Assembly (NCBI GenBank): GCA_020091685.1
Contig: CM034594.1
Span: 40,928,015 to 40,992,014, forward strand
Length of the DNA: 64,000 nt
DNA from: Lutjanus erythropterus
Lineage: Eukaryota > Chordata > Actinopteri > Lutjaniformes > Lutjanidae
Direction of reading: 5' to 3'
The position numbers and the translations under genes are program-made. Positions 11,560-58,162 of the stretch are shown here, one piece after another. The notes under the pieces are model-generated. The model made no database searches, was not told the DNA's origin, and saw only the letters and a list, made by a program, of their open reading frames with translations. The stretch's first letter is position 1. The number at the start of each line of letters is the position of its first letter.

Positions 11560-11599
11560 GGAGGATCGACCACTCCACCTTCATTTGTCCAAATGCCAG
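11560..11599 (+). CDS. pou2af2: pou2af2 internal exon (40 nt)
   Basis: The acceptor is TTCTCTTCCACAG and the donor is CCAG|GTGAG. The exon reads G-G-S-T-T-P-P-S-F-V-Q-M-P and ends with one base of the next Gly codon. The SFVQMPG string crossing the join is a family signature. The frame upstream of the acceptor is open but unlike the family, so a spliced exon is preferred to a start here. Confidence 0.82.
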
Positions 11600-14500
11600 G
11601 TGAGACTGCAGATCAAATACAACATCACAGATCTCACCTCTCCCTCTTAAAGCCTGCAGGACAAATCTGTCAACACCGTCTCATTCAGCCCTCTCATCAT
11701 TACGACAATTATTACCCCCCACAAAGCATTTCGACTCAGTTGTCTGCAAACTTCCAGAATTTGAGGTGTTAAACACTGTGTTTAGAAAGAGCTGCCATTG
11801 TGAAAGTGAGGACATCATTTTTGAGACAGTCGATCACTGTATCCTCATATGTGACTTTGATAATTAAGGTTAGGACTCAAAGGCTTAGCTCTTTACTTAC
11901 TGTGTTCATACACTGCCTTAAAACTTTAAGTTGACTGAATTTGAAAAGACAAGTTGAAGTAATTTTGTAACAATTCAAAACAAGTAAACTTATTTTCACG
12001 CTGGTGAAGAAGACACAAACACATTTGATTTCCTTTTACATTTTCTCAGTTTGAAAAGTCAGTTCTTTGTTTCACACGAAGAATTTCTGGCTGCAGCTGG
12101 AGCAGCCTGTTGGAGACACTTTGTCCCAGAATTGGCACAAAGACAACATTTGAAACTGAATTTATTAAGGTTGAACTGTAAGGGGGAAAGGACTGAATTC
12201 AATGCTACCCATCCAGCAAAGTTTGGTTGAAAAGACATTGACTGCCAGTCGTTTAAGAAACTTTTGATTTTGGCTAAAAGTGAACAATGAAAATGTCACT
12301 GAAAAGACAACTGTTCATTTACATCCCATCTATGCCTGATTTTGATCGAAAGTGAGAGGTAAAATGGTGTCTTTTTCATGTTGTTGAAAAGACAGCTATT
12401 CAAGGACGTCCCAGCTACGTCCAGTTTTAGTTGAAAGTGAAAGGTGAAAAGTTGTTAAAATAACAGATGGACTAAGCACAGCCGTCTCTTTTTAGGCTAC
12501 ATTTAGGCCAAATCGGACAGATTAAATAGGGTCCAAATTTCAACAACTGTTTTAACATTTATTTTTGACACAAATTTCAGCATTTATTTTTGGCTAAATA
12601 AAGACCATAGAATGACTACATTTAGCCCAAAAGACATCTTTTAAATGATATGTTTGGTGGGTAACCTTCATCATAGTTTGCAGTGTCATATATCATCATA
12701 TATCTTTTCTTCAAACTGTACTCTGCTAATCATTTTTCTTTAGAAACTTACTTTAATGAGTTGCTTGAACTCCATACAGTACATTCACTCAAGTCTTCAT
12801 TTCATTTCATGTTTAAGTTCAGTGGTTTTCTGAAAATAAATACTAGAAATTTTAAGTTTAAGTAACGTAATTACATAAGTAAAGTAAGTAAAGCTTCTAT
12901 ATTTGCTTTAAGACAAAAAAAAAAGACAAAAAGATTAGTTGATTACATTAAATTTGTGTATGATTTTCTACTGTGTACCTGTTTTTCCATTTGTCAGAGG
13001 AACTCCTTTTCCTTGGCGGCTCATTTGAGTTGTGGTGTCCCTCAAGGCTCTGTTCTTGGCCCGCTTCTGTTTTCTTTATGTTGTACATGCTGCCTCTTGG
13101 CCAGAATGATCAAAATCATGATGTGTATTGTCATTTTTATGCTGATTACACTTAGTTATACACGCTATTAAAACCCACAGACCCTAGTAGCCTAGCAAAC
13201 CTCATCAAGCCTGCCTCTCCGATATTAAATCCTGCTTATCCCAAAATTTCGTTAACTTTAACAAGGTCAGTCTGTTCGGTCTCTCAAATTCCATCAGCTC
13301 TTTTGGTTCTAATCTTTTTAGTTTTTCAAATAATATTAAGCATTTTCGGAAATGTTTGATATATGTTTTTCTTTATACTACTATATATTCATATATTATT
13401 TTCTTAATTTAAAAGCTTCATATTCTTCTGTGCAGGGTCTCACATGCTGCCCAGCTACTACGGCATGAGGCGTCCCTTCATCTCAGACTCAGACTTCTGC
13501 TCGTCCAGCAAGCAGTTCTCGCCTGACGTCTATTCATCCTCGTTGGGGGGTAAACCTCTAGGCTGCGAGCCCTCCACCATGACCAGCTACTCCTCCCTCA
13601 TTGACAGCTACTACCCAGAGACCTTCGGTGATTACCGCAGCGCCGCCGCCTTCTCCAGCTCCGGAGGATCCTTCCTGCCTTCGTCGGCCCTCTCATCCCT
13701 GCTGCCTCCCTTCGGTGGAGAGTCCTCGCATTTATTTCTGGTAGGAGAGCAGAGGCTCCCTCTGTGTGAGAGTCTGTGACTGACATGAGTGAAGAGGTGA
13801 TGGAGGTTCTAGAGATAACCATCTAGTTAATACACTGTAAAAACAAAAAAGTTGAGAAAAATCAAATTTCAAGTGTTGAAAAAATTTAATCAACTACTAA
13901 TATTTTGTTGAGATAATTAATTTACATCTCTTCTTTACATAAACTCAAATCTTTCAGGATTAGACAACTCAAAAATTGTATTTAAGAAATATTGTGCAAA
14001 TTAATTGAAGTGTAAGCAAATTATGGTGCAAATTTTATTATTTTTAATTAAACCATTTAGCTTCAGGTAGCAACATAGTGACAAATCAGCTTCCAGCTCA
14101 CTGTGACCAATTTCTGAAATTTTTTTTTTTTTGAGTTTATAAAACTCAAAGATTCACATTTAACTAAAGAAGAAAAGTAAATTCTCTTAAATGAAGAAAA
14201 TAAAGATTATAGTATGACAAAACGTTTTTTAAATTTATTTAACAAGTCAATAATTTGAGTTGGCCTCAAAACTAAAAGTATCTATTGCAGTAAGTTGAAA
14301 TTGAAATTTTGAGTTGTCTCAACTTTTTTTTCTACAATGCCGTACAGTACAGTTGATTTGAGGAATAATATAAATGGCATACTGCCTGCACTTCTGACAT
14401 GAGCAGTCAAGGAAATGAATGAATGAATGATTTGTCTTCTCTCTTGTCTTCCTGTCTCAGAGAGACTCATGGGAGCAGTCAGTTCCAGAGTCAGTATCCC

Positions 14501-14898
14501 AGGTGGAGGTTCTGTGTCAGGACAGCCTGGCCTCCGTCAGCGTCCCGCCCTCCATGCCCAGTCCCGAACCCCCGGGGAGCCCCTCCCAGTACCGCTCGCC
14601 CAGCCGCGGCTCCTCCATGGGCCCCGTCTCCAGCAGCCAGCCGTACACGCTGCACCCCCTGGAGGACGCCCACTACCACCCCTTAACCACCAGCAGCACT
14701 TACCCGGTCCCCTCCACCTCCTTCCCCTGCCCACCTTACATGAGCAGCCCCGTCAGCGACCTGGTGTCCAAGATGGTGACGGAGGAGGCGGCCGACAGCC
14801 ATGCAAGCCTCCCCGCCAATGGCGAGGCTCACTCCTGCTGGGCCAAAGAGGACGGAGTGAGCTCCTGGTCGCCCTATGAGATCAGGAGGGCCTACTGA
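11560..14898 (+). CDS. pou2af2: POU class 2 associating factor 2 (OCA-T1/C11orf53), 5'-partial
   Basis: Three exons (11560-11599, 13436-13740, 14461-14898) join in frame to give 260 residues and a stop. The family is a POU2F3 coactivator acting in the nucleus of tuft-type cells in mammals. Recognition rests on SFVQMPG at the first join, YYGMRRPFISDSDF near the start of the second exon, RDSWEQS across the second join, and the end W-x-x-YE-x-RRAY, which parallels human SYECRRAY as I remember it. The middle is rich in Ser, Pro and Tyr, as expected of an activation region. The N-terminal exon with the Oct-binding peptide was not found in the 11.5 kb upstream, so this is partial. The visible exons start in phase 0, which would fit the phase-0 end of the peptide exon in pou2af3. 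Introns hold a LINE fragment and a TIR element. Identity is secure; the true 5' end is unknown. Confidence 0.9.
11900..12650. repeat. Imperfect tandem repeats in pou2af2 intron
   Basis: Within 12200-12480, GTTGAAAAGACA recurs near 12227, 12298 and 12382, each followed by a diverged block ending in GTTGAAAGTGAAAGG-like strings, a unit of roughly 75-85 bp. The left part (TTTAAGTTGACTGAATTTG) resembles the TTGAG/CTCAA family. No coding content is seen. Confidence 0.55.
12956..13345 (+). mobile_element. LINE reverse-transcriptase fragment in pou2af2 intron
   Basis: Around 13015-13070 one frame reads SCGVPQGSVLGPLLF, a hallmark of non-LTR reverse transcriptases. A second frame reads FYADYT at about 13133, where the catalytic YADD is expected; the second Asp is lost. 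The two motifs are in different frames, so the copy is frameshifted. Weak similarity to the following segment continues to about 13345. The clade is uncertain (L2/Rex1-like). Confidence 0.8.
13436..13740 (+). CDS. pou2af2: pou2af2 exon with YYGMRRPFISDSDF block
   Basis: The acceptor is TTCTGTGCAG and the donor is TTTCTG|GTAGG. The exon opens with two bases completing a Gly codon and ends in phase 0. It encodes the most conserved block of the protein (YYG-x-RRPF-x-SDSDF followed by KQFS-x-DVY), then Ser/Pro/Tyr-rich sequence. Reading past the donor gives an unrelated tail, which supports splicing. Confidence 0.92.
13832..14338. mobile_element. TIR element (ACACTGTAAAAA end) in pou2af2 intron
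   Basis: The left end ACACTGTAAAAACAAAAAAG and GTTGAGAAAA is mirrored at the right by CTCAACTTTTTTTTCTACA. It is AT-rich and non-coding, and related to 8630-9127. It fills most of the 720-bp intron between the last two pou2af2 exons. Confidence 0.75.
14461..14898 (+). CDS. pou2af2: pou2af2 terminal coding exon
   Basis: The acceptor is CTTCCTGTCTCAG. The frame starts R-D-S-W-E-Q-S directly after the previous exon's H-L-F-L, restoring the block found in mammals. The exon is GC-rich compared with its surroundings and encodes Pro/Ser/Tyr-rich sequence, then S-C-W-A-K-E-D-G and the C-terminal YEIRRAY before TGA. GC-rich shadow frames run on both strands here and are not genes. Confidence 0.93.
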   Translation, partial: RDSWEQSVPESVSQVEVLCQDSLASVSVPPSMPSPEPPGSPSQYRSPSRGSSMGPVSSSQPYTLHPLEDAHYHPLTTSSTYPVPSTSFPCPPYMSSPVSDLVSKMVTEEAADSHASLPANGEAHSCWAKEDGVSSWSPYEIRRAY

Positions 14899-15344
14899 AT
14901 GGAGGACGGACCTGAGGTTCCCAATTTATAAGAAGGTGGAGGTTTCACAGACAATTAAACAGTGACCTCAACAAGCACCTGACAGTACAGTGAAAACTCA
15001 CTTAGTCGGACAGCTGTGAGGTGTTGTTGAAAGGACAGTTTCACACATTTATAAGAGAGGATTCGGGTTTGAATAGGAATGTGGTAGCCTGTGTTGAGAA
15101 AGGTGCCTGATTGGTGGAAAATTCCTACTTTTTTTTTTTTTGGAATATGTATCTTTTTTGTTTGTATGAAAAAGAGAGATCAGTGTGGACTTGATCAGAA
15201 AACCATCGCACCCTTAAAACTGAAAACCAAGCAAATATTTAGCGATGTGATAAAGTTGATAAAAAAGTCACTTTCGTGGTGTATAATATGAGGACTTGTG
15301 CTTGCTATGAAAAAAAAAGTTGCATGTTAAAGATCTTAAACTTA
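14899..15344 (+). other. pou2af2 3' untranslated region (extent unknown)
   Basis: This non-repetitive AT-rich sequence follows the stop codon. A close ATTAAA occurs near 14954. The nearest canonical AATAAA (16222-16227) lies beyond a repeat insertion, so the cleavage site cannot be set from sequence alone. Confidence 0.4.
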
Positions 15345-16089: not shown

Positions 16090-16119
16090 CACAACTACCC
16101 ATGGGGGGTAGTTGTGCAG
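16087..16119. repeat. Perfect hairpin, 14-bp arms, 5-nt loop
   Basis: CTGCACAACTACCC and GGGTAGTTGTGCAG are exact complements around ATGGG. It abuts the right end of the TIR/minisatellite element and may mark its insertion scar. Confidence 0.85.
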
Positions 16120-21463: not shown

Positions 21464-21473
21464 ATGATGTCTG
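21464..21473 (+). CDS. pou2af3: pou2af3 first coding exon (ATG ATG TCT G)
   Basis: Only ten coding bases precede the donor G|GTGAGT. Joined to 23413 they read M-M-S-D-K-P-K-V-Y-Q-G, matching the human start M-S-E-K-P-K as remembered. The out-of-frame ATG at 23384 just before exon 2 does not enter the family frame, which favours this start. Confidence 0.8.
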
Positions 21474-24400
21474 GTGAGTTTCACGTCGGATTTTCATCTG
21501 GAAATGGATTTTATTGCATTTTATCCTGTTAAGAAAAAACACAGAAGAGAAAAAAATGAGAGTGTTTAGTGGCAAAATTAAAAGAATAGCAGACTCATGT
21601 GCAAAATGAGGAGGATTTTCATACAGATGTTCATTTTATCACAAATTTAAATAATATATAAGATGACCAACAATAAAATTTAACTTTAAGATGTAAATCT
21701 TTGTACTTTAATGCCACCTGTTTCCTAGTTGATGGGTGGATCAAGAGAGCCGTTTTTTCATTCAAACACCCCTTTACAGCTTGACCGACTTTCAAAGATT
21801 TATTATAAGTGAAATTTCTGTGTTTTTTCTGTTGACATATGTCGGGACATGTAGATTATCAACTCCAGAGACATTTTATTATCATATATTAATTACAACC
21901 AGAGCTGACACTTCAGCCGTCGCCTCTCAGCCCGGGCTGCCTGTGCGTAACAGGACGTTAGAGTGGGATGTGTCTGCTCTGTGATTTTCGCCCACTATTT
22001 GCCACATTTAAGACAAATCATGAAGTAGCATTTAGCCGTATGAATATTTATCAGATGAGGTTTCGCAGCCGAGGCTTCGTCTCGTTATCAAATCGCTTTT
22101 TTCCAAACGGCTCGCCACTCCTGAGTGCATTAAATTACGCCTTTAGGCCTAAATTACACGCACCTATGCGAGGCATTCTCCCCCGGTTCCCGAATCAAGC
22201 TTCACCTATAGGAAAAGTTCGGCCAATTATTCCCTGAATGTGCCATAACGTCTTACACATGTCACATATCCGAGCTGTGCGCGGGGGCAGGAGTGATTTG
22301 AATAAAGTCACAGATTGGAGAAGAGATTAGGTTTGAATAATAGCCAATACGAGCCTGAAATTTCTTTTCGTTTTCCATTAAACGACAATATGATCAAACT
22401 GAAGCCAAAACTGAGCTTTGACTGAGTGATCGGACAGGTAACACGGAGCTGAAGTGCGTAAAGAGTAAACATTGTTTTCTTGGAGAGTTGTAGCGCTTTT
22501 TTTTACCCAAAGTAACTTAACTTAAGCGTCGACTCTTACGCACAACTGCAGCTCAGAACGGCAGCTTTAACAAAGCGTTCACTGAGAGAAGTCTAAAGTT
22601 TAAGTTACGATCGATTTACAGACTCTTTCAGCTCTTTGTTTGGGCGTTTTACGCGGTCGCCCCGAGCGCCCTTATCCAACTTTATCCAACGATCCTTCAC
22701 GCATTCCAAACTCTAGATCGACCCATTTGCAGTATTATACTTTTGTTCGATCGTTTACGCGTCTATGATCAGAAATATGTACTTACTGTAGCGCGTTTTG
22801 TGCCTTTTCCTTTGTTCCTGGTCTGGGCGGGGTGGCTCTGATCACACACGGCTGGCTGCAAAGACAGAGTCAGCTCACGGGGAAGTAGGTAATGCCGTAA
22901 AGAGGGAGCTCTGGTCAGCAGCACTGGGGGCTCCGGGGTCGGGACAAGCGGGCGAAAATACCCGGAGCCACAGCGCGCATTGAAACGCTAATAATGCGCC
23001 TTTACGCACCGCAGATTCAGACAAAAATGTATAAATTCAAGCGCCACACACGTTTCAAATTACACTTTATTGTTTATTATGACATGTAATATATGTTAGC
23101 AACATTATTCACCACTAAAATGAGTGAATTCAACAGTTGGCGGGGTGTTGGACAATATGGCAAAATCATTGTCTCATGGAGAGACTGCAGATTACCGGGG
23201 ACAAAAATGTGAGGAGTTATTATTTCTATTAATTTCTGGGAAGAAAATATACAATGGGCTGCAACTGAAGGAGGAGGGATGGGGGAGGTGGGGGGGGGGG
23301 GTCATTGTGGGGTGGAGAGGCGGAGAAGAGAGAGAGCCAGTGTCTGCTATTGTCTGCTCCAGCAGGGAGGGTGTTTGGTAAACATGAGTGACATGCTGTT
23401 CTCTTCGTGCAGACAAACCGAAGGTGTACCAGGGTGTCCGGGTGAAGATCACGGTCAAAGAGCTGCTGCAGAGGCAAAGAGCCCGCGAGGCCAACAGTAA
23501 AAAAGTTAAAACGGTAACTTTCCCTCCCTCCACCCCCTCCTCCCCTTTTCTCTCTCTACATCCTCACTGTCACTCTGCCTTTTCCAGGAGAGAAAAAAAA
23601 GTCACTGAGCAAAGCAATAAAGTGGCCCAGTAAATGACTGACTAACCCTGCCACACACGTTTCTAACAAAGCCCTTAAGCACGCACACAAACACAAAGAC
23701 ACACAAACATTTGCAGAAACAAAAACCTCCGTGAAAAATGATCTCTTTCAAATTAAAACCAAAATGACCTGACAGAAAATATCTAATACTCTCCTCCTCC
23801 TCTGAACAGATATCCCAGGCTTGTCTGGATCTTCAGGAGCTCATGTCCACCTTTCCAAGTAAGTTCAATATCCAAGTCCAGTATCTAACGCTAAAGAGTA
23901 ATCCAACCTGACCGAAAGCAGGACCACGAGCTACACCTACATTTTCGATGTACAATCTGAAAAGTGAAGTCAAAATTGACATGCAGTCTGCAATGATCCA
24001 AATTTAAAAAATCCAGCCATTACAGTACTCTAAATCCAACTGTTCAGTAATCTGAAAACTCCGCACTGTTTGCAGCAAGTCAGCTAAATCTGATCGTGTC
24101 TTTGGATGAATCTAAAAGAGGAAAAATCAGCGGCACTCCTTGATGTCAGGCAGCAACCTGCCCTGAACCCTTAAAAACCAGGATTAAAATACTCACATGA
24201 ACGCACCAGTCATGACCGACTAGCCAGAAAAAGAAACTTGTAATGTAATTTCTAGTCAACTATTGACAGCTCCATTCCAAAAGTGCAGGGCCCCTTCTTA
24301 TAAACCATGATGGCTACATTCAAATGTGTTGGCTGATGTTGTCATGACATCACTCTGAACTTATAGGCCTATTTAAATTTCTTCCTGTGCTCTGTTACCA

Positions 24401-26876
24401 TGCAGACACTAACCTGCACCTTTCTTGGGTGCAGTCTTGAAGACATTTTCCCCACACCTCACTTTAATTCTTAGTGTCGGTAGATTAAATCTAGAAAACT
24501 TTTATTTTGAAATGCAACATAAGAACAGCTTTCAAGCGCTGGTGTGTTGCCGATATGTAATTTAACATATATGACAGTCATGTAGTGTGGTTCGAGTTTA
24601 CATTTTTATTCACTTTTATGTCATTTTTCATCTAAATTTTATATTGAATTCTGTTAGGTCGCTATGTGGATCCTCCTACCGCAGCTCCCCCTGCGGACGC
24701 GAGCAGCTGTGGCGCGCGATCCCTCCAGCTGCGCGCGGCGAGCTCGTTCCCCTTCCCTGATAGCTCGTGCAACGTCCAGCTGCAGGAGAGCGCCTTTAAC
24801 GACATCCAGCAGCAGTTCGGGGACATGATGTTGCCCAGCAACGGCTACAGTGGCGGCGGCAACAACAACAACAACAACAATAACAACAACAACAACAACA
24901 ACAACCACAGCAGCAGCGGTGGCGGCGGCGGCGGCAGCTACAACGCCTCCCTGCCTCCCCCTCCCTGGTGCCACGGACTCTCCTCTGATGCGGACTACTA
25001 TGGCCATGGGATGGTAGGTTTCTCCAACTGACACTAACCAAAGTCCATGTAGTTTTTTGAAAATTGTTATCTCAAGTCGGTTATGGGTTAAATGTGTAAA
25101 AAGATGCCCCCCAGTTGTTATCTATGAGGTCTTTTGGTGCATTCGGCATGGACTATCAACACAATTTTAATTTACAGGCAACCCAAATAGGGTAAATCTA
25201 TATTTAAAACTAGAGCCAGACAGATATCTCGGTCTACCGATATTTTGGCCAATATTTTCCTATCACAGTGTATCAGTATCAGCATATATGTTGTCCAATA
25301 CTTGCTGACATGGAAACCTTTTTGTTTTGACAGAAAATATGCAGATTTTTAAAATTTTATTTTATAGGCACAATTTTGTGTATAGTTGACCCTTTTTCTT
25401 AATTCAAATTTAATATGCAGATATGTTTTCTATGTGTTTTTTAAAATGTATACTTATTCATAATGATTAGAAATACCAGTGAAAGTTTACTGTTTCAGTG
25501 GCCTGATATCATTGTCACATGGATTATTGCAATATTGGTTGATATATTCATATCTGATTTGTTTTACTCCCTAATATCGTTCTCAACATCGGCCCCAAAA
25601 ATCCAGCATCGGTCAGGCCCTACTTAAATGTGATGTATTTCTTGACAGTTGACAGTTTGATGATCAGGATGTATGCAGAATAGAAGAGAGTTTTAAGTTA
25701 AACTGGTAAATGTATTGAAAAATGATGTCAGTGGAACAAAGTGTTTCTAACACCTCAGGCGACATTAAATTGTACATTTTTGGAATAGAGGTTCGGCATG
25801 GCTCAGCAGAACCCTGCACTGAGGCTTGAATTCAGCATGTAGGACTTATATTTGTATGGTCTGTAGTACATGAAAGTAGATAATTCAGTTCAATTCAATA
25901 CAACTCTATTAATTAAGGAAGGGAATTTCATTCAGGGTGTGGTGAAAACAGAAGGGGAACATTGTTTTATTTGTAATAAGATCTGTTTTTGATCCAGTGG
26001 GAACTCATTTTACTGTAGAAAATACTTAAACGCAGCCTAAAGTAGATATACACATCAGGAGAGGAACATTATGTAAATAGTTTAATAAAGGAATAATTAC
26101 ACTGTAAAAAAAAAAAACATACAGGAATTTAGTGGAATCAACTAATCTTGTCTAGTTAACTTAATGTAAATAGACAAGTTTTATTTATTCAACTTAATTA
26201 AATTTAAAATTGCTGTTCAGGACATGTTAGAACTTATTAACACAAGTTCTTCTCACCTGAATAGTTGTTGGTTCAACTTAAAATCTTAAGCTGAGCTAAT
26301 CTTTTTTCTCAAGTATAAGTTGAATTAATATCATGTTAATTTGACTAGAAAAGTTTATTTGTTTTGAATCATAAAATTACCTCAACTCTTCTTTTCAAAT
26401 TCAGTCAAGTTTTTTAAAGTTAATCAAATATTTTTTACAGTGCATGTCCATCACATGACACATTTGCTCCACAATGTCCTCACCATCCACCATATCTCCT
26501 CCTCTTCCTCCTCCTCCTCCAGGCTCCCTGCTCCTCACCGGAGTCCCTGAAGTTCTCCAACCCCATGGATCACAACAGCTACTCGCCGCAGCAGGACTCT
26601 TTCTCCTCCTCCTCTTCCTCCTGCTACGACTCCCCCACCAGGATGGAGTCCAGCTACCCCGGCTTCACCTCCGAGCACTTCCACTATCAGCACTGCACCC
26701 TCCAGGACTGTTACTGCCTGCCCCACTGCTGGCCGGGCCAACAGGAGAGCTTCTCTGCCCCCGAATACGCACCTTACTACACCCCCACAGACTATCCATA
26801 CGCCTATCCCGTGGAAGAGAACTATTTCAAGAGGGATTTGCAGATGGGATCCGAAATGTGTTATAATGTACTATGA
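21464..26876 (+). CDS. pou2af3: POU class 2 associating factor 3 (OCA-T2/COLCA2), complete
   Basis: Five coding exons (21464-21473, 23413-23513, 23810-23858, 24658-25013, 26523-26876) total 870 nt, giving 289 residues plus stop, all joined at GT/AG sites in frame. The product should bind POU2F factors (POU2F3 in mammalian tuft cells) and activate octamer-driven genes in the nucleus. Residues 5-27 hold the Oct-binding peptide KPKVYQGVRVKITVKELL, nearly identical to human COLCA2 as I recall it. Residues 122-136 are 15 Asn in a row, followed by a Gly run. The C-terminal third is rich in Tyr/Ser/Pro with a Cys/His-rich stretch (HYQHCTLQDCYCLPHCW), and the end N-Y-F-K-R ... CYN resembles the human end. 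The start ATGATG has G at -3; the second Met would serve equally. Human COLCA2 is somewhat shorter, largely for lack of the Asn/Gly tract. Confidence 0.92.
21880..22990. promoter_or_regulatory. CpG-rich, non-repetitive block in pou2af3 intron 1
   Basis: This 1.1-kb block has far more CG dinucleotides than the surrounding AT-rich DNA, matches no repeat seen elsewhere in the window, and contains homeobox- and forkhead-like strings (TAAATTACGCC, GTAAACATTG, ATGAATATTTATC). Short open frames inside are not protein-like. It could be a CpG-island promoter for an alternative first exon, or an intronic enhancer. Confidence 0.45.
23413..23513 (+). CDS. pou2af3: pou2af3 exon encoding the POU/octamer-binding peptide
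   Basis: The acceptor is CTCTTCGTGCAG and the donor is AAAACG|GTAACT. The 101-nt exon encodes YQGVRVKITVKELLQRQRA plus a basic tail, REANSKKVK. This peptide is the signature of all POU2AF proteins, where it clamps the POU domain and octamer DNA. It is the only copy of this peptide found on either strand of the window. Confidence 0.95.
23810..23858 (+). CDS. pou2af3: pou2af3 small third exon (49 nt)
   Basis: The acceptor CTCTGAACAG and donor CCA A|GTAAGT bracket I-S-Q-A-C-L-D-L-Q-E-L-M-S-T-F-P. The phases (0 in, 1 out) fit both neighbours exactly. It falls where mammalian proteins have a variable linker, so the support is splicing logic rather than sequence identity. Confidence 0.72.
24658..25013 (+). 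CDS. pou2af3: pou2af3 fourth exon with Asn and Gly homopolymers
   Basis: The acceptor is ATTCTGTTAG and the donor is GGGATG|GTAGGT. It opens R-Y-V-D-P-P and carries a 15-codon Asn run at 24861-24905 (14 AAC and one AAT), then a Gly/Ser run and L-P-P-P-P-W-C-H-G-L. Antisense frames here are poly-Val or poly-Cys artefacts of the AAC repeat. Confidence 0.87.
24861..24905 (+). repeat. (AAC)15 coding microsatellite
   Basis: Fourteen AAC codons and one AAT encode 15 consecutive Asn in pou2af3. Near-pure codons point to replication slippage and probable length polymorphism. Confidence 0.97.
25208..25622. mobile_element. TIR element in pou2af3 intron 4
   Basis: The left end TAGAGCCAGACAGATATC and the right end ATCGGTCAGGCCCTAC are inverted with mismatches. 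The interior is rich in CGATATT/CCAATATT strings. It is a common non-autonomous type in fish. Confidence 0.65.
26099..26442. mobile_element. TIR element (ACACTGTAAAAAA) in pou2af3 intron
   Basis: The left end ACACTGTAAAAAAA and the right end ATTTTTTACAGTG are inverted. The interior is AT-rich, with TTCAACTTAA and TTAAGCTGA motifs. It ends 80 bp before the last pou2af3 exon. Confidence 0.75.
26523..26876 (+). CDS. pou2af3: pou2af3 terminal coding exon
   Basis: The acceptor is a long pyrimidine run ending CTCCAG. The exon begins A-P-C-S-S-P-E-S-L-K-F and ends with N-Y-F-K-R and CYNVL before TGA. Tyr-Ser-Pro-rich sequence in the first half resembles human COLCA2, as does the Cys-rich middle. 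Confidence 0.92.
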   Translation, partial: APCSSPESLKFSNPMDHNSYSPQQDSFSSSSSSCYDSPTRMESSYPGFTSEHFHYQHCTLQDCYCLPHCWPGQQESFSAPEYAPYYTPTDYPYAYPVEENYFKRDLQMGSEMCYNVL

Positions 26877-29121: not shown

Positions 29122-30322
29122 CACTGCCTGAACAAAAAAAAGTTACCACCTGTATTTAACTAAGTAAATAGTTAAGATCCTTCCATTGGATAATTACTGC
29201 AGTGATTAATATGTTTCAGCTGACAATAAGTTATTTAACTCTAACTGATGCAGTGAGGAGCTTCTCATTTCTTAAACAACCATGTCAGAAGACATATCCT
29301 GATGTTACGCTGTTTCATAAGGGTCAAATTATTGACCTGCATCAAGCAAAGAAAACAACTAAAAAGATTGATGGAACTACTAAAACTGGGTTAAGAACTG
29401 TCCAACACATTATTAAAACCTGGAAGGATAGTGGTGAACCATCATCTTCCAGGAAGAAATGTGGTTGGAAAAAAATCTTGAATGATCATGATCGGAGATC
29501 ACTTCAACATTTGGTGAAATCAAATTGTAAAAAACCAACAGTAGAACTCACAGCCATGTTTAATAGTGAGAATAAGAACATTTCCACACACACAATCTGA
29601 ACTCAAAGAACTGGGACTAAACAGCTGTGTAGCCTTAAGAAAACCACTTATCAGTGAAGCTAATTAGAAAAAAAGGCTTCAGTTTGCGAGGGAGAATAAA
29701 GATTAGACTGGATCAATGGAAAAAGGTCATGTGGTCTGATGAGTCCAGATCTACCCTGTTCCAGAGTGATGGGGGCATCAGGGTAAGAGGAGAGGCAGAT
29801 GAAGTGATGCTCCCATCATGCCTAGTGTCTACTGTACAAGCCTGTGGGGGCAGTGTTATGATCTGGCGTTGCTTCAGTTGCTCAGGTCGAGGTTCAGCAA
29901 CATTATGTGTCCAAAAAATGAGTTCAGCTCACAACCTGAATATACTGAATGATCAGGTTTTTACATCAGTGGATTTTTTTCTTCCCTGATGACACGGACA
30001 TATTCCAAGATGATAATGTCAGGATTCATCGGGCTCAGATTGTGAAAGAGTGGTTCAGAGAGCATGAGACATCATGAGTCCAGATGTTACCCCCACTGAG
30101 AATCTTTGGGATGTGCTGGAGAGACTTTACACAGTGGTCCGACTCTCCCATCATCAATAAAAGATCTTGTTGAAAAATTAATGCATCTCTGGACAGAAAT
30201 AAATGTCGTAATATTTCATAAGCTTATTGAAATGATGCCATGGTGAATGTGTGTTGTAATCAAAGCTAAAGGCTGTCCAATGAAATATTGGAGTGTGTGA
30301 CTTTATTCTTGGCAAGGCAGTG
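29122..30322 (+). mobile_element. Tc1-like DNA transposon, inactive copy
   Basis: The element is bounded by TA dinucleotides and inverted ends CACTGCCT, with an A-rich stretch after each. Between them, two frames (29202-29600 and 29654-29989) and a third stretch to about 30150 encode pieces of a Tc1-family transposase. An N-terminal helix-turn-helix region (GLRTVQHIIKTWKDSGEPSS) is followed by the catalytic region with MWSDES and SVMIWRCFS, then FQDDN and PTENLWDVLERL remnants. Stops and frameshifts separate the pieces, so it cannot make an active enzyme. Confidence 0.88.
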
Positions 30323-39225: not shown

Positions 39226-39241
39226 AGCATGACTTTCTTTC

Positions 39242-42002: not shown

Positions 42003-42430
42003 CATACTGTTTTTAAATTATCCCCTAATAAAGTCTATTAAGCGTCTCATAGTGGGAAACAACACACTTTAGTTTACAGGACAGTTCTGTTGTAATGTGC
42101 CCCATTACCCTCTAATGAAGTCTAGTAAAGGGTCTAATAGTGGGGAATAATACACTCTAGTTTTCAGTACAGTTCTGTTGTAATGTGTCTCAAATTATTG
42201 TCTAATGAAGTCCAATAAAGTGTCTGACAGCAGGAAATAATGCACTTTATTTTACAGTACAGTTCTGTTGTAATGTGCCCTGTTACCCTCTAATGAAGTC
42301 TAATAAAGGGTCTAACAGTGGGAAACAGCACACTTTAGTTTACAGTATAGTTCTGTGATGCATCTTAAATTGCCCTCTAATAAGTCTAAAAAGGGTCTAA
42401 TACCGTCTAATAAAGAACATATTTTTAGTT
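42003..42430 (+). repeat. 88-bp minisatellite, four copies
   Basis: ACAGTTCTGTTGTAATGTG recurs at 42081, 42169 and 42259 with a degraded fourth copy near 42347, a steady spacing of 88-90 bp. TCTAATAAAG/TCTAATGAAG strings fill the rest of each unit. Looser relatives continue to about 42600. Confidence 0.88.
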
Positions 42431-44146: not shown

Positions 44147-45610
44147 CACTCCTGAACAAAATCTTAAGACCGGGAGAAAAATTGTAAGTATTCGCATTTT
44201 GCACTGGTGGATCATAACCAGGTTGTAAGTGGAGCTTCAAAATACAAAAAGAAGAAACGGGAGCAAGAGACAAAAAATAGAAAGTAGGCAATTTATTTAA
44301 AACTGGATTTAAACTCAAACAGGCTGTTCATCAGCTGATCAAAAGTTTAAGACCATAGCCCAAAAAAACCCCAAAACAGAACTAAAAGTGTCAAAAAAGG
44401 ACTCAGTAGTGAGGAGCCCCACCGTCCTTGTTGACCACTTCAAAAATTTGTTTAGGCCTGCTTGATGCGAGTGTTTCCAGGAGGCTGGTGGGATCATTGC
44501 TCCATGTGGGGAAGATGGCTTCACAAAGGGCATCCACAGCCTGGAACTGACGTCCATTGTTGTAAACTTCCCTTGCCATCATACCCAAATGTTATCAGTG
44601 GGATTTAGATCAGGGGAACGTGCAGGATGATCCAAAAGAATGACATTATTCTCCTGGAAGAAGTCTTTCGTCAGGCAGGCGTTAACTAAGGCATGAACTG
44701 CAGTGTTGTCTTGTTGAAAGACAGAGTCATTACCACACAGACGAGGGCCCTCAGTCAAGAGGGATGCCCACTGCAACATCTCCACATAGCCAGCTGCCAT
44801 TTGACGCCCCTGCACAACCTGAAACTCCATTGTTCCACTGAAGGAAAAAGCACCCAGATCAAGATGGAGCCTCCTCCACTGTGCCGCGTAGAAAACATCT
44901 CCAGTGGGATCTCCTTGTCATGCCAGTAACATTGGAAGCCATCAGGACCCTCCAGGTTAAATTTTTTATCGTCAGAGAATAAAACTTTCTTCCACATTTC
45001 AGTGACCCATGTTTCGTGCTCCCTTGCAAACTCCAAATGGGCAAGTTTGTGGTGAGGGAGTAGACGTGGCCTTTGAAGACATTTATTATTCTTTAAGCCC
45101 TTCTGTCTCAAATGGCATCTTGTGGTTATTGGGCTGCAGTCAGCATCAGTAAGGGCCTTAATTTGGGTTGAGAATCGGCCTGTGTCTTCATGGACAGCCT
45201 GTTGGATCCACCAGCTCAGTGCAAGTGAAATTTTTTGGGGTCTACCACTTGATTTTTTGTCCCACAGACCCTCAGTCTTACTGTGTCAAACCTCGGCAGC
45301 AATGGCACGTTGCAAGAGGCCTTTCTTGTGCAGCTCAACAATCCTGCTACGTTAAAAGACAGAAAGCTTTTTTGCCTTTGCCATCAAGAGGTCATGACAG
45401 TATGAATACCTAAAAGAAAATGACATGAAGGAAAGATTTTTGCACAGATTTTGACTTTTTAAGGCTATGGTCTTAAACTTTTTTTGTCTCTTGCTCCTGT
45501 TTCTTCTTTTTGTATTCTGAAGCTCCACTTACAACCTGGTTACAATCCACCAGCGCAAAATGAGAATACTTGGAATCTTTCCCCCGGTCTTAAGATTTTG
45601 TTCAGGTGTG
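44147..45610 (-). mobile_element. Tc1-like transposon with long inverted repeats, inactive copy
   Basis: Ends CAC(T/A)CCTGAACAAAATC are inverted and flanked by TA. The inverted repeats are about 200 bp and each contains two copies of a TTAAGACC-bearing site (outer near 44164 and 45590, inner near 44348 and 45470), an IR/DR layout as in some fish Tc1 elements. Minus-strand frames encode transposase fragments: [26 protein letters not shown] and GRQFQAVDAL. The usual Glu of PIENLW is Asp here (PTDNIW). In-frame stops and frameshifts make it inactive. Confidence 0.9.
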
Positions 45611-52936: not shown

Positions 52937-52942
52937 TTTATT
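52937..52942 (-). terminator. Candidate polyadenylation signal for pou2af1
   Basis: AATAAA on the minus strand lies about 325 bases past the stop codon. A second copy lies further downstream near 52850, so site choice is uncertain. Confidence 0.35.
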
Positions 52943-53267
52943 ACAACTTATTTTTGGTCATTTTGACCACCATTCTTATCTGTTATAATAACAATGTAAT
53001 GGCTAAATTAACTGTTGAGATCAAGGAGCATAGAAATATTACTACCAAGATGTCAGACGGGTGTAAGAATTGATGCAAGATTATCAAAATAGTTAAATAG
53101 TTTAATTTCTTTTTTACCACTTGCCCAATTGAGTAAGTGAGTTGCCAGATTTAGTTGCCTAGCATGGCATTTTAGCCAAGTTGTAATAAACCCAAATTAT
53201 CCTTGTTGTTCTTTATAAACAAAAAGAAAAAATACTGCTCTCCACAGATAGAAGAACGCTCATATTT

Positions 53268-53687
53268 TCAGACATTGGGAATGAAGATTGAGTTGTTGTA
53301 AGAGTCTTTGTCCTCCACGACGCTGTTATCCTTTTGTTCATCCAGAAGTTTATCCAAAAGGCTTGGGGATTCCGGCTCTACCCCTGCATCCTCATCAAGA
53401 GACTGGCTGTGCTGTTCAGGGTCCAGCTGGTGGTCTGGACGCTGCAGGTCCAGTATCTGTGGTTGAGGATCTACACCCTGGGGGATCATGGTGGTCAAAG
53501 ACATGGACAGGGGCATGTGGACCAGAGGTGACCCAGGCAGGGCTGCAGAACCCGGGGCAAACTGGACCCCTGGGTTGGGCATGGTAGATATTGTGGTGAG
53601 GGGCTGGGCCCAGGGGAGGTAGGTCAACCCTGAGTCTGGGAGCTCCATCTGAGGGAGGGCTGCTGGTGCTGGGGCCACAGGTATGGT
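53268..53687 (-). CDS. pou2af1: pou2af1 terminal coding exon
   Basis: On the minus strand the acceptor GTTGTTTCAG is followed by T-I-P-V-A-P-A-P. The exon carries LTYLPWAQPLTTI, a Pro/Met-rich activation region, and the acidic LLDKLLDEQ end. The stop is TGA at 53270-53268. The open frame continues upstream into the intron, but that extension is not family-like. Confidence 0.93.
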   Translation of the reverse strand, partial: TIPVAPAPAALPQMELPDSGLTYLPWAQPLTTISTMPNPGVQFAPGSAALPGSPLVHMPLSMSLTTMIPQGVDPQPQILDLQRPDHQLDPEQHSQSLDEDAGVEPESPSLLDKLLDEQKDNSVVEDKDSYNNSIFIPNV

Positions 53688-56600
53688 CTGAAACAACACC
53701 AAATAGTACTAAATGGTCACAGAGGAACTAAAACTATCAAAGGCATAAACTTTTGAAAAAGTGCAAACCACAATTATATGTCTGCGTCAATAGAAGTTCA
53801 TGAAATTATAGAAAACTAGGTTGAGCGAGGAACCTATGACTAAGTCTGGAGGGGAGTATGTGATCGTTTCCATTTGTGCGCGTGATCCCTTGACTTACAG
53901 CTTGTCCCAAGCTGATCTCAAATACTACCAGATCACATGGTTAAATTCTTTTTGTGCACATTCATGACTGTATGCTGACGGACCTCTGGCATTTTGTTTT
54001 CAGGTCATCTCATTCTTGTGAACGTGATATCTCAAAAATTCCTTGAGGGAATTTCTTCAAACTTTGGCTTTGTGACCTCATGTTCATCTGGTTCTTGTGA
54101 GGGCGATATGTCCAGAACACTTGGAAGGAATTTCTTCAAACTTGGACTCGAGCATGAACTATTTAGATTTTGGAAGATGAAGATCAAAGCTTAAGATTAA
54201 TGTGACTTCACTTAACACATTTTTGGCCATAACTCAAGAATTCATTATCCACTTTTCACAGAATTACACACCAATGTCTAATAGGGTACAATGATGAGGT
54301 GATGACATTTTATATCCAAAGGTCAAAGATCAAGTGCACTGTGACATCATAATGTTCAGCTCTGTTTCAGTTTGAAATCTTGTTTCAGCTCAGGACAAAG
54401 TACGTGTGGGTCATGTTAATGTTGGTGGAGCAGGTTTTCCCTGAATTGAGAGGAGTTACTTACTTTCCCTGGTTATTACTGTAATCCAGCATTGATCTCA
54501 GCAATTACTTTGACAAGAGCATTGTAGAAACCATGGTTGTAATAAACCCAAATTATCCTTTAGTTGTTCTTTATGAACAAACAGAAAACATACTGCTCTC
54601 TATGGACAGAAGAACGCTCAAATTTTCAGACTGCTGCTAACTTTGGTTGATGCTGTATGAGTCTTTGTCCTCCTCTATGTCGTCATCCTTTTGATCCTCT
54701 GAAGTTTATCCAGGAGGCTCGGTGATTCTGGCTCTACCCCTGCATCCTCATCCAGAGATTGGCTTTGCTGTTCGGGGCCCAGCTGGTGGTCTTAATACCT
54801 TGTTGCCTTTTATTAAATTCCTTCAAAGTTAGCTGTTGTCAAGCTGAAAGCTAGAACCAAGGCAATGGCAACCTTTATAGACAAGACAGACACTATTATC
54901 CAGGCTGTTCTCTTTGCTTCTCTTTGCTTTGCTGAACTCTTGAAACCCCAAAAGAACCAGTATGTTGGCATGGCTATGCATCAATGTCAACTTAAAGTGA
55001 CACTAGATTTATGCAGATACATCGGTCTCTAGTAACTGGTTCAGGAAAATCAACTCCAGGGGAATTCTGTTAGAGTGGAGGCAATGTCAACATGAAGATA
55101 GAAACGGAGCATGCCAAGTTGGCAATTTTGTCTGATATCAACAACTCTCAGTGAGCTCTACAAATCCTTTAGTCCAACGGTTCACAACAACCATGCTGTG
55201 AACGGGTAACAGTCTGAGCAGTGTTGACTACTGGGTCTCAATCATGTGATCTGACAAAAAACAGTAACCCATCCACCCCCCACCTCAACTGCCACCACCT
55301 CCTGCTGGCGCAAGCGATGGATGCCAGATAATTAAGAATGATGGTGTTCGGAAATCTGCCTTCAGTTTAGATACCGCTCATATACCTGTAAATGAGCACT
55401 GAAATGATAATCTTACTGCCCTGGACTGGATTCTTTGTATTTAATGTCTGGACAGAATATTTTACAGTAAATTCAGTCTGATCTAACCATGATCCCCATG
55501 CAACCCAGTAATCCATGACACTGCTCTTAGCTAGCATCAAAAAACAGTCAGAGCCCCTGCTTTATGTCACAGATGGTTAAAGTTGGTCAGTCTGTTTGAA
55601 GAAGTTATACTTCAGCCAATCCACGTTTTGTCAGAGGTTAATAACATTTTTGCTTTTTTAGTTATGAAAACTTGTCAGCACTGGAATCTCTGCCAGTCAC
55701 TGGAACTGCTGCAAAGTCAAGCTGGCCACATGTGTTGCTCTCTGTGAGGGAGAAAACCACCACTCATCAATGCCGATCTTCATTTGATACTAAAGAGCTA
55801 GAAGGTTTAGACTGGAGTATGACGTTAAGCATAGGAAAATGTTGGGATCTGCCAAGCAGGAATCTGACAGCAAGCTGGCACAAAGATCTGCCCAAGACAC
55901 GGAACTCGAGAGCAGATTGGGTTAGGTTTCTGCTTCCTGTTTTTATCAGGACTATCAGTCCAGTTCATCCAGGCTTACACTTCTCTATAACTTTAAAAGT
56001 ACTATGTGAAGCAATTTACATGTATTAATTGCTCTGTTTTGCTAATATGTGAATGAATTGTGACCTAGCTTTAAAAAAAATGAAACCTTCCTAGTCTTTG
56101 CTAATAAGAGTCTCTGGACTGATTTCTAAGTTTTAGGACTCTGGCATGTTTCTTACAACTTACAATTTCTGTTAGAAACTTTAAAGGATGTGATGCTCCC
56201 AGGAGCCATCCCTCTTTTCAGCTCTCCAACTCTAGCTAACGTTAGCTTGGAAATGGAGTCACCTGCCACAACACAAGCCTAACTTTATCTCATCTATCAA
56301 CATGATTCTGGTCGAACATGTTCAGTCTCGTGTACGTCACGTCACAAATCTAGTCAATACCCAGTAGGGCTGGGCAGTACTAACAGAGCACTTCATTTGA
56401 TATCTTCCTTTTTTGACTTCATTCCATTAAAAAATACTAGTAGTAGAGCCATACGTTCAAACATTTTGGTGACATTTCAGCACACTGAACTACAAACTCT
56501 GTCAAATACACCACGATCGACTTCACTACACCACAGACTATATGGGTTGTAGCTTACAACAAAAAGTATTTTTTTCCAGTTCTGGGAACAAAAAGGATCA

Positions 56601-58162
56601 AATGCAGGTATTGTTTGACAGGAGAAGTTTCAGTACTACTTAAAGCATCATTATCATGAGTATTTCAGTCAGTACCTTAAAGGTTTTGACCACCAATACC
56701 CGGCCCTCATGTCAAAGATGCCCGCTTGCCACTGGTGTCAATAATTAATGACATCGATATTCTGAAAATTCCACATAGTACCTTTAACAAAGATAATAGG
56801 ACTACACGTCTCAGACACAACACATGCAGAATGGTTGCGTCTGTTGTTGAGGTCAATATTTCAACGTTCATCACTTCCTGTGGCTGGAAAAGAGATGAGC
56901 CCCAGGATTCTTCCTCTTTCTAATGTTCCCAGTGATTTATTTTGCAGTACCCATGCTACTGTACTATTTAATACACCTGAAAAAGATTTAATGTGTCCCA
57001 ACATGTCAAAAATGCCAAGATGTCCCTCTGCATCCACTTGCATTTTGCAGTATGCAAACCAGCAGGCTTTTCTGACTATTTTGACCCCTAATCCTTTGTG
57101 ATTGGTGCTTGAGTGAGAGGTTCAGATTTCAAGGGCAAGGACAGCTGAAGTATGTCATAAATGTAAAAAGAAAAAACATGTAATTGGGAATGCAGGGTTA
57201 GTCGGTGCAGTTTTGCAAAGCCTTGTCTGGTGGAACATTAAAGAAAAAAAAAATTTTTTTTTAGTATGAATTGCAGAGGTTTGCAGATATCAGCTGTAGA
57301 GATGTCTGCCTTCTATCCAATATAATAAGACTAGATGGCACTCGACTTGTGGTGCTCAAAGCACCAAAAGAAAAAAAAAACATATACATTTGTAAAATTC
57401 AAAACCAGTGTCCACAGTAATTCACAGACCCTGTTGTGAGCAGTTTCATGTAGGAACTACATTCTTTCTATTAGAAAGGAAGTAGCTCCAGTAGATTCTA
57501 AGGTAGTTGCAGTAGACTCTACTGCAGAAAGAAAGTAGCTCCTACATGAAACTACTCACAACAAGGTCTGTGGATTATTTTGAGCAACAAGGTCATGATT
57601 TCTCTACGGTCAATATCTCCAAGTCCAACCAAAACAGTATAGATGGATAAATAGCACAAGTATGTATTTTGGGGATGAGCTGTCCCTTTATGCATTTCTT
57701 TGTTCACCTGTTGTCTTCTACTCACCCCAAAGTTAGTGAGCAGTGGTGCGTGTGTGTAAGTCAGCATGGTGTAGCTGGGACACAGAGTCTGCATGTACAC
57801 ATCAGCGGTGAGGGCCGGGGTGGCTGAGTAGGCCAGAGTCTGAGCTGAGCGCTCCTGCTGGTTGTAGTCGGACGAGGACCAGGCCGTTACAGCAGGCTGC
57901 AGGCTGGCGCCAGCGATGGTGGCGGGGGGCACAGCTTTCCATCCCGCACCCTGCAGCCCTCCGTCGCCGACCGCAACTGACTGCTCGGCTGGGGAGCCGC
58001 CGGCAACATCAGAGCCGAAGATGGCTGAAAATCAAAGAGAAGGTTGAGTGTGAATCTTCAGACAGGCAGAGACACATGCTTTGCTTACAGGAATCAGTTT
58101 GTTAGGAATGAACGTGTACCTTGTGTGTATGATGACTGGTTATTGTTTTGTGCGACCACATC
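53268..58162 (-). CDS. pou2af1: POU class 2 associating factor 1 (OCA-B/BOB1), 5'-partial
   Basis: Three exons on the - strand (58162-58120, 58024-57726, 53687-53268) join in frame to 253 residues and a stop. OCA-B is the B-cell coactivator of Oct1/Oct2. Matches to human POU2AF1, as remembered, include ADVYMQTLCPSYTMLTYTHA (human ADVYVQPVCPSYTV...LTYASP), LLTNFG, LTYLPWAQPLTTI (human LTYFPWPQPLSTL) and the acidic end SLLDKLLDEQKDN before DSYNNSIF. The upstream exon with the Oct-binding peptide was searched for on this strand up to 64000 and not seen, so it must lie beyond the right edge. The intron between the last two exons is 4 kb and carries a decayed second copy of the terminal exon. pou2af1 faces pou2af3 across a 26-kb gap. 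Confidence 0.93.
53990..54365 (-). repeat. DR1-bearing dispersed repeat, inverted copy in pou2af1 intron
   Basis: The complement blocks CATAACTCAAGAATTCATTA, CCAAAGGTCAAAGATCAAG and ATCATAATGTTCAGCTCTG identify the family. The left part (TTTCTTCAAACTTGG, twice) is an additional tandem segment, also hinted at in 37795-37925. Confidence 0.7.
54520..54795 (-). pseudogene. Decayed duplicate of the pou2af1 last exon
   Basis: This stretch repeats 53170-53440 in the same orientation: the 3' flank (ATAAACCCAAATTATCC), the region around the stop codon (AGAAGAACGCTCA) and the coding part for SPSLLDKLL and the following acidic residues. Several small indels break the frame, and the copy stops inside the exon before any splice acceptor. 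It therefore lies in the last intron as a non-coding fossil of a tandem duplication with a spacing of about 1.35 kb. Confidence 0.85.
54796..57261. other. pou2af1 intron, no further exon recognised
   Basis: Neighbouring exons join in phase 0 without it. The 118-residue + strand frame at 55672-56028 has no recognisable domain and is opposite to the gene. Confidence 0.55.
56366..56707. mobile_element. TIR element (AGGGCTGGGCAGTA) in pou2af1 intron
   Basis: The left end AGGGCTGGGCAGTACTAA and the right end CCAATACCCGGCCCT are inverted with mismatches. It is non-coding. Confidence 0.6.
57262..57690. mobile_element. TTAAAGGGACAGTTCACCC element with internal fold-back
   Basis: It lies in the last pou2af1 intron, 36 bp from the splice donor at 57726. 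CACAGACCCTGTTGTGAGCA near 57423 is mirrored by CTCACAACAAGGTCTGTG near 57560, so about 150 bp can fold on itself. The right end is TGAGCTGTCCCTTTA; the left end is missing. Confidence 0.75.
57726..58024 (-). CDS. pou2af1: pou2af1 exon with ADVYMQTLCPSYT block
   Basis: On the minus strand the acceptor TTTTCAG is followed by A-I-F-G-S-D-V, and the donor is TTTGGG|GTGAGT. The exon is GC-rich. It encodes the conserved ADVYMQTLCPSYT and LLTNFG segments characteristic of OCA-B. Confidence 0.92.
58120..58162 (-). CDS. pou2af1: pou2af1 internal exon (43 nt)
   Basis: On the minus strand the acceptor is CTTTTAG and the donor CAAG|GTACAC. The exon reads D-V-V-A-Q-N-N-N-Q-S-S-Y-T-Q with one leftover base, and joins in frame to the exon at 58024. 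It corresponds to the linker after the Oct-binding peptide. Sequence identity is weak; phase and splice sites carry the call. Confidence 0.7.

What the first reader, a model, noticed from the sequence alone, without database searches (positions are those of the whole stretch)
11560..58162. A complete three-member POU2AF (OCA) coactivator cluster in one fish locus
pou2af2 (+), pou2af3 (+) and pou2af1 (-) are recognised from conserved blocks and in-phase splicing. The order and orientation match human 11q23.1 as I recall. This implies the tuft-cell pair (OCA-T1/OCA-T2) and B-cell OCA-B were already clustered in the bony vertebrate ancestor, and that fish may use the POU2F3-POU2AF2/3 system.
Basis: partly seen in the sequence, partly recalled or inferred. 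Interest (0 to 1): 0.7.

Follow-up and report, generated by a model that had tools for sequence, protein, structure and literature searches.

The report
Fish immune and tuft-cell coactivator cluster
This fish carries side by side, as humans do, its versions of three genes that help POU-family transcription factors run B cells and tuft cells; the trio is an expected find, but a fourth gene with the same POU-binding motif, of the IkappaB-zeta kind, lies next door and hints at where that motif may have been shared.

Summary
The three genes are real: Pfam or PDB sequence matches identify pou2af2 (+), pou2af3 (+) and pou2af1 (-), and the exons join in phase with AG/GT borders. The finding's interval is not complete, though. 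It holds one of the three POU-binding (OCA) exons, that of pou2af3; the others lie just outside the window in the same genome, pou2af2's 1.2 kb left and pou2af1's 7.1 kb right. With predicted first exons the cluster spans 85.5 kb. It is the only POU2AF locus that two family searches found in the 938 Mb genome. All three genes share five coding exons and intron phases 1-0-1-0, which suits tandem duplication. Human clustering and the strand of POU2AF1 are in papers; the rest of the human order is recalled. No BTG-domain hit lies on this contig, so btg4 is not next door. Use of the POU2F3 system by fish is plausible but untested. Beyond the window, 41 kb past pou2af1's predicted first exon, lies an OCA-bearing IkappaB-zeta-like gene whose first four intron phases match the POU2AF genes. 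This suggests, but does not prove, a 5-prime module shared through ancient linkage.

The parts
11560..11599 (+). pou2af2 exon 3 (exons 1-2 lie left of the window at C4:40924221-40924230, predicted, and 40926733-40926833)
   Evidence: AG/GT borders, phase 0 in, 1 out; GGSTTPPSFVQMPG
13436..13740 (+). pou2af2 exon 4
   Evidence: PF17721 E 5.8e-39, profile 1-100, for the open frame holding it; borders
14461..14898 (+). pou2af2 exon 5, with stop
   Evidence: PF17721 E 9.2e-39, profile 99-233, for the open frame holding it; borders
21467..21473 (+). pou2af3 exon 1, predicted start (MS; an earlier in-frame ATG is at 21464)
   Evidence: chosen among 6 listed ATG-donor candidates, two of which are this one exon, by phase, donor and fit to a recalled human start; prediction only
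23413..23513 (+). pou2af3 exon 2, the OCA peptide KPKVYQGVRVKITVKELLQRQR
   Evidence: PDB 9pfn POU2AF3 E 7.5e-10; only OCA peptide found in the window
23810..23858 (+). pou2af3 exon 3
   Evidence: AG/GT borders, phase 0 in, 1 out
24658..25013 (+). pou2af3 exon 4, with a poly-Asn/poly-Gly tract
   Evidence: AG/GT borders, phase 1 in, 0 out; no Pfam family over its cut-off for this body
26523..26876 (+). pou2af3 exon 5, with stop
   Evidence: AG acceptor, open frame to stop
58120..58162 (-). pou2af1 exon 3 (exons 1-2 lie right of the window at C4:41009659-41009674, predicted, and 40999154-40999281)
   Evidence: AG/GT borders, phase 0 in, 1 out
57726..58024 (-). pou2af1 exon 4
   Evidence: PF09310 E 5.1e-7 for the open frame holding it; borders
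53268..53687 (-). pou2af1 exon 5, with stop
   Evidence: PF09310 E 1.2e-7 for the open frame holding it; borders
54563..54792 (-). partial duplicate of the pou2af1 last exon and 3'UTR, inside intron 4, with a shifted frame
   Evidence: three ungapped blocks 80-89% identical, offset 1356-1358 nt; frame read by eye

Best explanation
The locus is the fish counterpart of the human 11q23.1 POU2AF cluster: pou2af2 (OCA-T1), pou2af3 (OCA-T2) and pou2af1 (OCA-B), three tandem paralogues of one five-exon gene. Each is predicted to start with a short coding exon, followed by an exon for the OCA peptide and then an activating region. By the mechanism established for the mammalian proteins, the OCA peptide binds a POU2F protein on octamer DNA and the rest activates transcription: with POU2F3 in tuft-like or solitary chemosensory cells for pou2af2/3, with POU2F1/2 in B cells for pou2af1. 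Shown here: gene identity, exon structure, order in the fish, one locus in the genome at the sensitivity used, and OCA peptides that keep the motif except for one conservative (pou2af1 K to R) and one non-conservative (pou2af3 K/R to Q) change. Inferred: expression, partner choice, activation and the three first exons.
For: Pfam PF17721 and PF09310. PDB POU2AF3 best for the pou2af3 OCA exon. Three OCA exons with AG/GT borders. Same phases 1-0-1-0 in all three gene models. Whole-genome matches only here: PF09310 5 of 7 candidates scored, PF17721 2 of 3. Human cluster (PMC13043367, passages) and strand of POU2AF1 (PMC7907150, passages). pou2f3-positive tuft cells in zebrafish gut (PMC13381698, passages) and gill chemosensory cells (PMC12927525, passages).
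Against: No transcript was seen. The three first coding exons are predictions, guided by recalled human starts. The pou2af2 OCA exon alone scores below the PF09310 cut-off (E 0.158); the OCA exons of pou2af2 and pou2af1 were not put against PDB, so they rest on motif, place and phase. Three papers on zebrafish tuft-type cells contain no 'pou2af' (0 occurrences). A review says channel catfish OCA-B failed to co-activate in reporter assays (PMC13043367). btg4 is not adjacent.
Confidence: 0.95

Rival explanations
1. One or more of the three genes no longer binds or helps POU2F, so the cluster is kept by descent rather than by the known function.
For: pou2af3 has Q where the published motif has K/R, and pou2af1 has R for K in GVRVK (motif, peptides). 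A partial copy of the pou2af1 last exon sits in its own intron. Catfish OCA-B was inactive in one study (PMC13043367, passages).
Against: Body exons are open with AG/GT borders. pou2af2 matches the whole PF17721 profile, positions 1-233 of 233. Y, Q, G, V, R, V, V, K, L, L, R are invariant in the three OCA peptides.
Confidence: 0.1
2. The three OCA peptides arose separately (convergence or exon shuffling) and the genes are neighbours by chance.
For: The bodies after the OCA exon hardly align, and pou2af3's body matches no Pfam family over its cut-off.
Against: Same exon count and same four intron phases, about 4e-4 by chance under assumed phase frequencies. Only locus found in the genome. Clustered in human too.
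Confidence: 0.03
3. The IkappaB-zeta-like gene beside the cluster is there by chance, and its OCA motif has nothing to do with its neighbours.
For: Two other IkappaB-zeta-like loci lie elsewhere (C24 and C5), and the C24 gene also has an OCA-like exon, so the motif does not depend on being next to POU2AF. OCA motifs were not counted over the whole genome. Two to four matching intron phases are weak evidence.
Against: Of three IkappaB-zeta-like loci that I counted in 938 Mb, one lies 41 kb from the only POU2AF locus found (arithmetic by hand, about 5e-4, post hoc). Its OCA motif is the more complete of the two IkappaB motifs read (29.1 against 14.7 bits).
Confidence: 0.5

Closest known systems
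Human POU2AF2 / OCA-T1 (C11orf53)
   Same: OCA peptide fits the published motif without a mismatch; body matches the full-length Pfam profile
   Different: 297 residues in the fish model; the human construct in PMC9576728 ends at residue 288; expression unknown
Human POU2AF3 / OCA-T2 (COLCA2)
   Same: best PDB hit of the OCA exon, same residues KPKVYQGVRVKITVKELLQ
   Different: Q at a K/R position of the motif; poly-Asn/poly-Gly tract in exon 4
Human POU2AF1 / OCA-B (OBF-1, BOB.1)
   Same: OCA exon and two body exons match PF09310 over its cut-off; strand as in human
   Different: GVRVR instead of GVRVK; last 35 positions of the Pfam profile not matched
IkappaB-zeta (NFKBIZ), whose OCA motif is known (PMC12807641, passages; PMC11393961, passages)
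   Same: C4:41050670-41062725 has an OCA exon followed downstream by ankyrin repeats; PDB 9bor IkappaB-zeta is the only IkappaB among the 60 of 362 matches listed and aligns in one stretch over 1-157 of 160
   Different: linked to the POU2AF cluster; ankyrin repeats after the fourth not found in the stretch read

Membership tests
POU2AF (OCA) coactivators | OCA peptide (R/K)xYQGVRVKxxVK(D/E)LLxx(K/R)R | tested here: met
   motif from PMC9576728; pou2af2 0 mismatches, pou2af1 1 (K to R), pou2af3 1 (K/R to Q), by reading
POU2AF (OCA) coactivators | family-specific body after the OCA peptide: pou2af2 and pou2af1 | tested here: met
   PF17721 1.2e-82 for pou2af2, PF09310 2.7e-17 for pou2af1
POU2AF (OCA) coactivators | family-specific body after the OCA peptide: pou2af3 | tested here: inconclusive
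   no Pfam family for the body; joined protein rings PF09310 in its OCA part at 2.9e-5, below the cut-off. Likeness of the C-terminus to human COLCA2 is recalled
POU2AF (OCA) coactivators | three genes clustered on one chromosome, as in human | tested here: met
   fish; human: PMC13043367 (passages)
POU2AF (OCA) coactivators | same order and orientation as human 11q23.1 | tested here: inconclusive
   only the strand of human POU2AF1 comes from a paper (PMC7907150) and agrees; the rest of the human order is recalled
POU2AF (OCA) coactivators | binds POU2F on octamer DNA and activates transcription | not testable with these tools
   needs binding and reporter tests; catfish OCA-B failed reporter assays (PMC13043367, passages)
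human flanking order (btg4) | btg4 next to pou2af1 | tested here: not met
   PF07742: 11 matches among 12 candidates scored, none on C4
human flanking order (layn) | layn nearby | not tested
   no search made
IkappaB-zeta (for the C4 neighbour gene) | OCA motif | tested here: met
   OCA profile 25.5 bits, E 6.8e-6 in 324 kb; best in 30 Markov-resampled copies 13.9 bits; three departures from the POU2AF motif, one of them the Ile that PMC12807641 reports for IkappaB-zeta
IkappaB-zeta (for the C4 neighbour gene) | IkappaB-zeta-type ankyrin repeats rather than another IkappaB | tested here: inconclusive
   for: Ank_4 4.1e-11, PDB 9bor, 39% identity and 120 bits to recalled IkappaB-zeta against 36% and 82 bits to recalled NFKBID and 40 bits to recalled BCL3. 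Against: with recalled IkappaB-zeta as query of the genome the gene gives one piece at 5.2e-5, below six other ankyrin pieces and the C24 and C5 genes
IkappaB-zeta (for the C4 neighbour gene) | full ankyrin domain | tested here: inconclusive
   later repeats not found up to C4:41122014

The most novel reading that the evidence does not exclude
The OCA motif of IkappaB-zeta and that of the POU2AF proteins come from one ancestral 5' gene module (start exon plus OCA exon, phases 1 then 0) that was shared between neighbouring genes. This fish would still show that ancestral neighbourhood: three POU2AF genes and an OCA-bearing IkappaB-zeta-type gene modelled within about 139 kb (C4:40,924,221-41,062,725). 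The C4 gene would be an old IkappaB-zeta paralogue, absent as far as I recall from human 11q23.1, and the C24 nfkbiz would have lost the DNA-contacting arm of its OCA motif while keeping the helix.
Probability: 0.3. Interest if true: 0.75.

Novelty: new member of a known kind. Interest (0 to 1): 0.45.

Why it matters
The trio indicates that the B-cell and tuft-cell coactivators were already clustered before fish and tetrapods parted, so fish with accessible pou2f3-positive gut and gill cells can be used to ask what OCA-T1 and OCA-T2 do. If the IkappaB-zeta link is right, it gives a testable origin for the motif that lets IkappaB-zeta bridge NF-kappaB and POU factors, a link described in 2022-2024 and without an evolutionary account in the passages I read.

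Tried and rejected
Window-only reading: with one OCA exon in the window I considered that pou2af2 and pou2af1 had lost theirs. The genome rejected this.

Exact YQGVRVK-coding pattern in the genome: 5 matches against 1 for the reversed control pattern. Two are the OCA exons of pou2af2 and pou2af3; those on C6, C12 and C17 lack the following VK(D/E)LL and were taken as chance. The pattern misses pou2af1 (GVRVR). A wider genome-wide count of OCA motifs was not obtained, so 'fourth OCA gene' holds for the 324 kb searched only.

btg4 beside the cluster: rejected for this genome. EED beside the cluster (a trout nfkbiz neighbour in PMC10299181, passages): a recalled EED sequence found nothing convincing in 324 kb (best E 1.3).

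The C4 neighbour as NFKBID rather than IkappaB-zeta: zeta scores higher (120 against 82 bits), but both references are recalled. In the genome search with its own ankyrin part, the C24 nfkbiz was the weakest of 7 matches, below two generic ankyrin pieces on C8.

The C24 OCA-like exon: its score (12.8-14.7 bits) does not stand out from what resampled 324 kb reached (up to 13.9); I keep it for its place and phases only.

pou2f3: four multi-piece POU2F-like loci (C5, C6, C11, C17) with best pieces 86-93% identical to a recalled POU2F3 domain; which one is pou2f3 I cannot say.

Of no use: Rfam scan, 0 matches; tblastn of one pou2af2 exon against phages; pou2af3 exons given singly to Pfam.

Paper searches: 10 of 10 used. 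In their capped listings I saw no study of fish POU2AF2/3, nor of POU2AF linkage with an IkappaB gene. The trout IkappaB paper holds no 'pou2af' or 'oca'.

Full report
What is in the window. The window is G000:C4:40,928,015-40,992,014 of a 938 Mb genome in 444 contigs. Eleven coding exons of three genes lie in it, one of them predicted. On the + strand: pou2af2 exons 11560-11599, 13436-13740 and 14461-14898; pou2af3 exons 23413-23513, 23810-23858, 24658-25013 and 26523-26876, with a predicted start exon at 21467-21473. On the - strand: pou2af1 exons 58120-58162, 57726-58024 and 53268-53687. Internal borders are AG/GT and the frames run through.

Identity. The joined pou2af2 body matches PF17721 over its whole length (1-233 of 233, E 1.2e-82) and the joined pou2af1 body matches PF09310 (E 2.7e-17). 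The pou2af3 OCA exon matches solved POU2AF3 best (7.5e-10), then POU2AF2 (1.2e-4) and POU2AF1 (8e-4). The body of pou2af3 has no Pfam family over its cut-off; its assignment rests on the OCA exon, its place and its structure, with a recalled likeness of its C-terminus to human COLCA2.

Completeness. The finding calls the cluster complete within 11560-58162. It is not. A motif scan in six frames and a profile scan find one OCA peptide in the window. The genome supplies the rest: the pou2af2 OCA exon at C4:40926733-40926833 and the pou2af1 OCA exon at C4:40999154-40999281. In the first joining script the pou2af1 OCA exon was one base too long and the frame broke; with the border at the GT the frame runs through. 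Predicted first exons are at C4:40924221-40924230 (MDT; one of 2 listed candidates in 20 kb that end in G) and C4:41009659-41009674 (MHWEK; the only listed candidate, under a filter modelled on a recalled human start). With these the cluster is 85,454 bases long. The model proteins have 297 (pou2af2), 288 (pou2af3) and 301 (pou2af1) residues.

Shared build. All three models have five coding exons with intron phases 1, 0, 1, 0. OCA exons are 101, 101 and 128 nt, third exons 40, 49 and 43 nt (pou2af2, pou2af3, pou2af1). Under assumed phase frequencies the agreement of four phases in three genes has a chance of about 4e-4. I take the three as tandem paralogues.

Copy number and neighbours. In the whole genome PF17721 rings twice (3 candidates scored) and PF09310 five times (7 scored; one match below the cut-off), all at this locus. 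So no second cluster from the fish-specific genome duplication was found at this sensitivity. The left flank has ADAMTS-type frames on both strands and a BTB-domain frame (5 of 7 frames given to Pfam matched; likened from memory to ADAMTS8/15 and ZBTB44). BTG-domain genes give 11 matches, none on C4, so btg4 is not a neighbour here. For human, a review states that the three genes form a cluster on chromosome 11 (PMC13043367, passages), and a SNP table shows POU2AF1 running towards lower coordinates (PMC7907150, passages), as in the fish. The side of POU2AF3 and the place and strand of POU2AF2 in human are recalled.

A fourth OCA gene next door. Long open frames in the right flank included one with EKVYLGVRVKMPVRDLLRNIR, in an exon at C4:41050670-41050791 (+), 41 kb from pou2af1's predicted exon 1. 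An OCA profile built from six peptides (three human stretches printed, three fish) scores it 25.5 bits, E 6.8e-6, fourth after the three POU2AF exons in 324 kb. Thirty Markov-resampled copies reached at most 13.9 bits. Nine exons, this one included, join in phase with AG/GT borders up to C4:41062725. The later ones hold ankyrin repeats. In PDB 362 sequences match and 60 are listed. Four ankyrin-repeat proteins rank above IkappaB-zeta by summed score, with best stretches of 60-83 residues; IkappaB-zeta (9bor, E 8.3e-33) is the only IkappaB listed and aligns in one stretch over 1-157 of 160. Repeats beyond the fourth were not found. Introns 1 to 4 of this gene have phases 1, 0, 1, 0, as in the POU2AF genes.

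Other IkappaB-zeta genes of this genome. A recalled human IkappaB-zeta domain gives 16 matches. Five are at C24:11666347-11668135 (62-69% in four pieces, 33% in a fifth), two at C5:21933094-21935981 (50-51%), one at the C4 gene (43%, E 5.2e-5). The other eight, 32-42% identical on C2, C4, C5, C7, C8 and C11, I took as other ankyrin genes; six of them have lower E-values than the single piece of the C4 gene, which counts against a close kinship, though the joined exons align at 39% over 160 columns. Two thousand bases upstream at C24 hold an exon reading FFATELRPPEYTQAIQKKNTVKELLKMRRQ, phase 1 in and 0 out, after a possible start exon ending in phase 1. It keeps the helix half of the OCA motif and lacks the YQGVRVK arm. 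Its score, 12.8-14.7 bits, does not stand out from the best of the resampled copies (13.9 bits), so only its place and phases speak for it. If it is real, the start-exon-plus-OCA-exon build is the same in both IkappaB-zeta-like genes read and in the three POU2AF genes. The OCA likeness of IkappaB-zeta and POU2AF is known (PMC12807641, passages; PMC11393961, passages). In the passages I read I saw no account of its origin or of linkage.

How it most likely works. Known for mammals (PMC9576728, first of two parts read; PMC13043367, passages): the OCA peptide binds POU2F with octamer DNA and the C-terminal region activates. The fish peptides keep Y, Q, G, V, R, V, V, K, L, L and R. pou2af3 departs from the published motif at one K/R (Q) and pou2af1 at one K (R). 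pou2f3-positive tuft cells are reported in zebrafish gut (PMC13381698, passages) and pou2f3-expressing chemosensory cells in gill (PMC12927525, passages), so partner cells exist in fish; neither paper's text contains 'pou2af'. Four POU2F-like loci are in this genome. That pou2af2/3 act there is inference. Against easy transfer, a review reports that catfish OCA-B did not co-activate.

Verdict. The trio is a sound identification of known genes in one more vertebrate, with corrected limits. The linked OCA-bearing IkappaB-zeta-like gene is the part a specialist may not expect. It is one genome, the linkage estimate is post hoc and by hand, and matching phases are weak evidence by themselves, so I hold the common-origin reading at about three in ten.

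Noticed in passing
right of the window, C4:41050670-41062725 (L023-L025): IkappaB-zeta-like gene with an OCA exon, 41 kb beyond pou2af1's predicted first exon; first four intron phases as in the POU2AF models.
   Followed up: yes
C24:11668857-11668948 (-), L039: OCA-like exon upstream of the likely main nfkbiz: helix KNTVKELLKMRR present, YQGVRVK arm absent; phases 1 in, 0 out; score not above chance for a long search.
   Followed up: partly
54563-54792 (-): Partial duplicate of the pou2af1 last exon and 3'UTR, 80-89% identical in three blocks, 1.36 kb from the intact exon.
   Followed up: partly
24860-24940: (CAA)n tract coding a run of 15 Asn, followed by a poly-Gly stretch, in pou2af3 exon 4.
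   Followed up: no
29172-29989 (+) and 44579-45285 (-): Short Tc1-type transposase-like frames: HTH_SB (0.0037) and HTH_Tnp_Tc3_2 (9.8e-6), both below their cut-offs.
   Followed up: no
12866-13168 (+): Reverse-transcriptase-like fragment (RVT_1 E 0.0037, below cut-off) inside a pou2af2 intron.
   Followed up: no
42016-42400; 57413-57582: An 88-nt unit repeated 4.4 times, and an inverted repeat with 57-nt arms and a 56-nt spacer in pou2af1 intron 4.
   Followed up: no
C4:40806705-40845826 (L034-L038): ADAMTS-type frames on both strands and a BTB-domain frame left of the cluster.
   Followed up: partly
[quoted passage not shown] whether it overlaps pou2af3 exons is worth checking.
   Followed up: no
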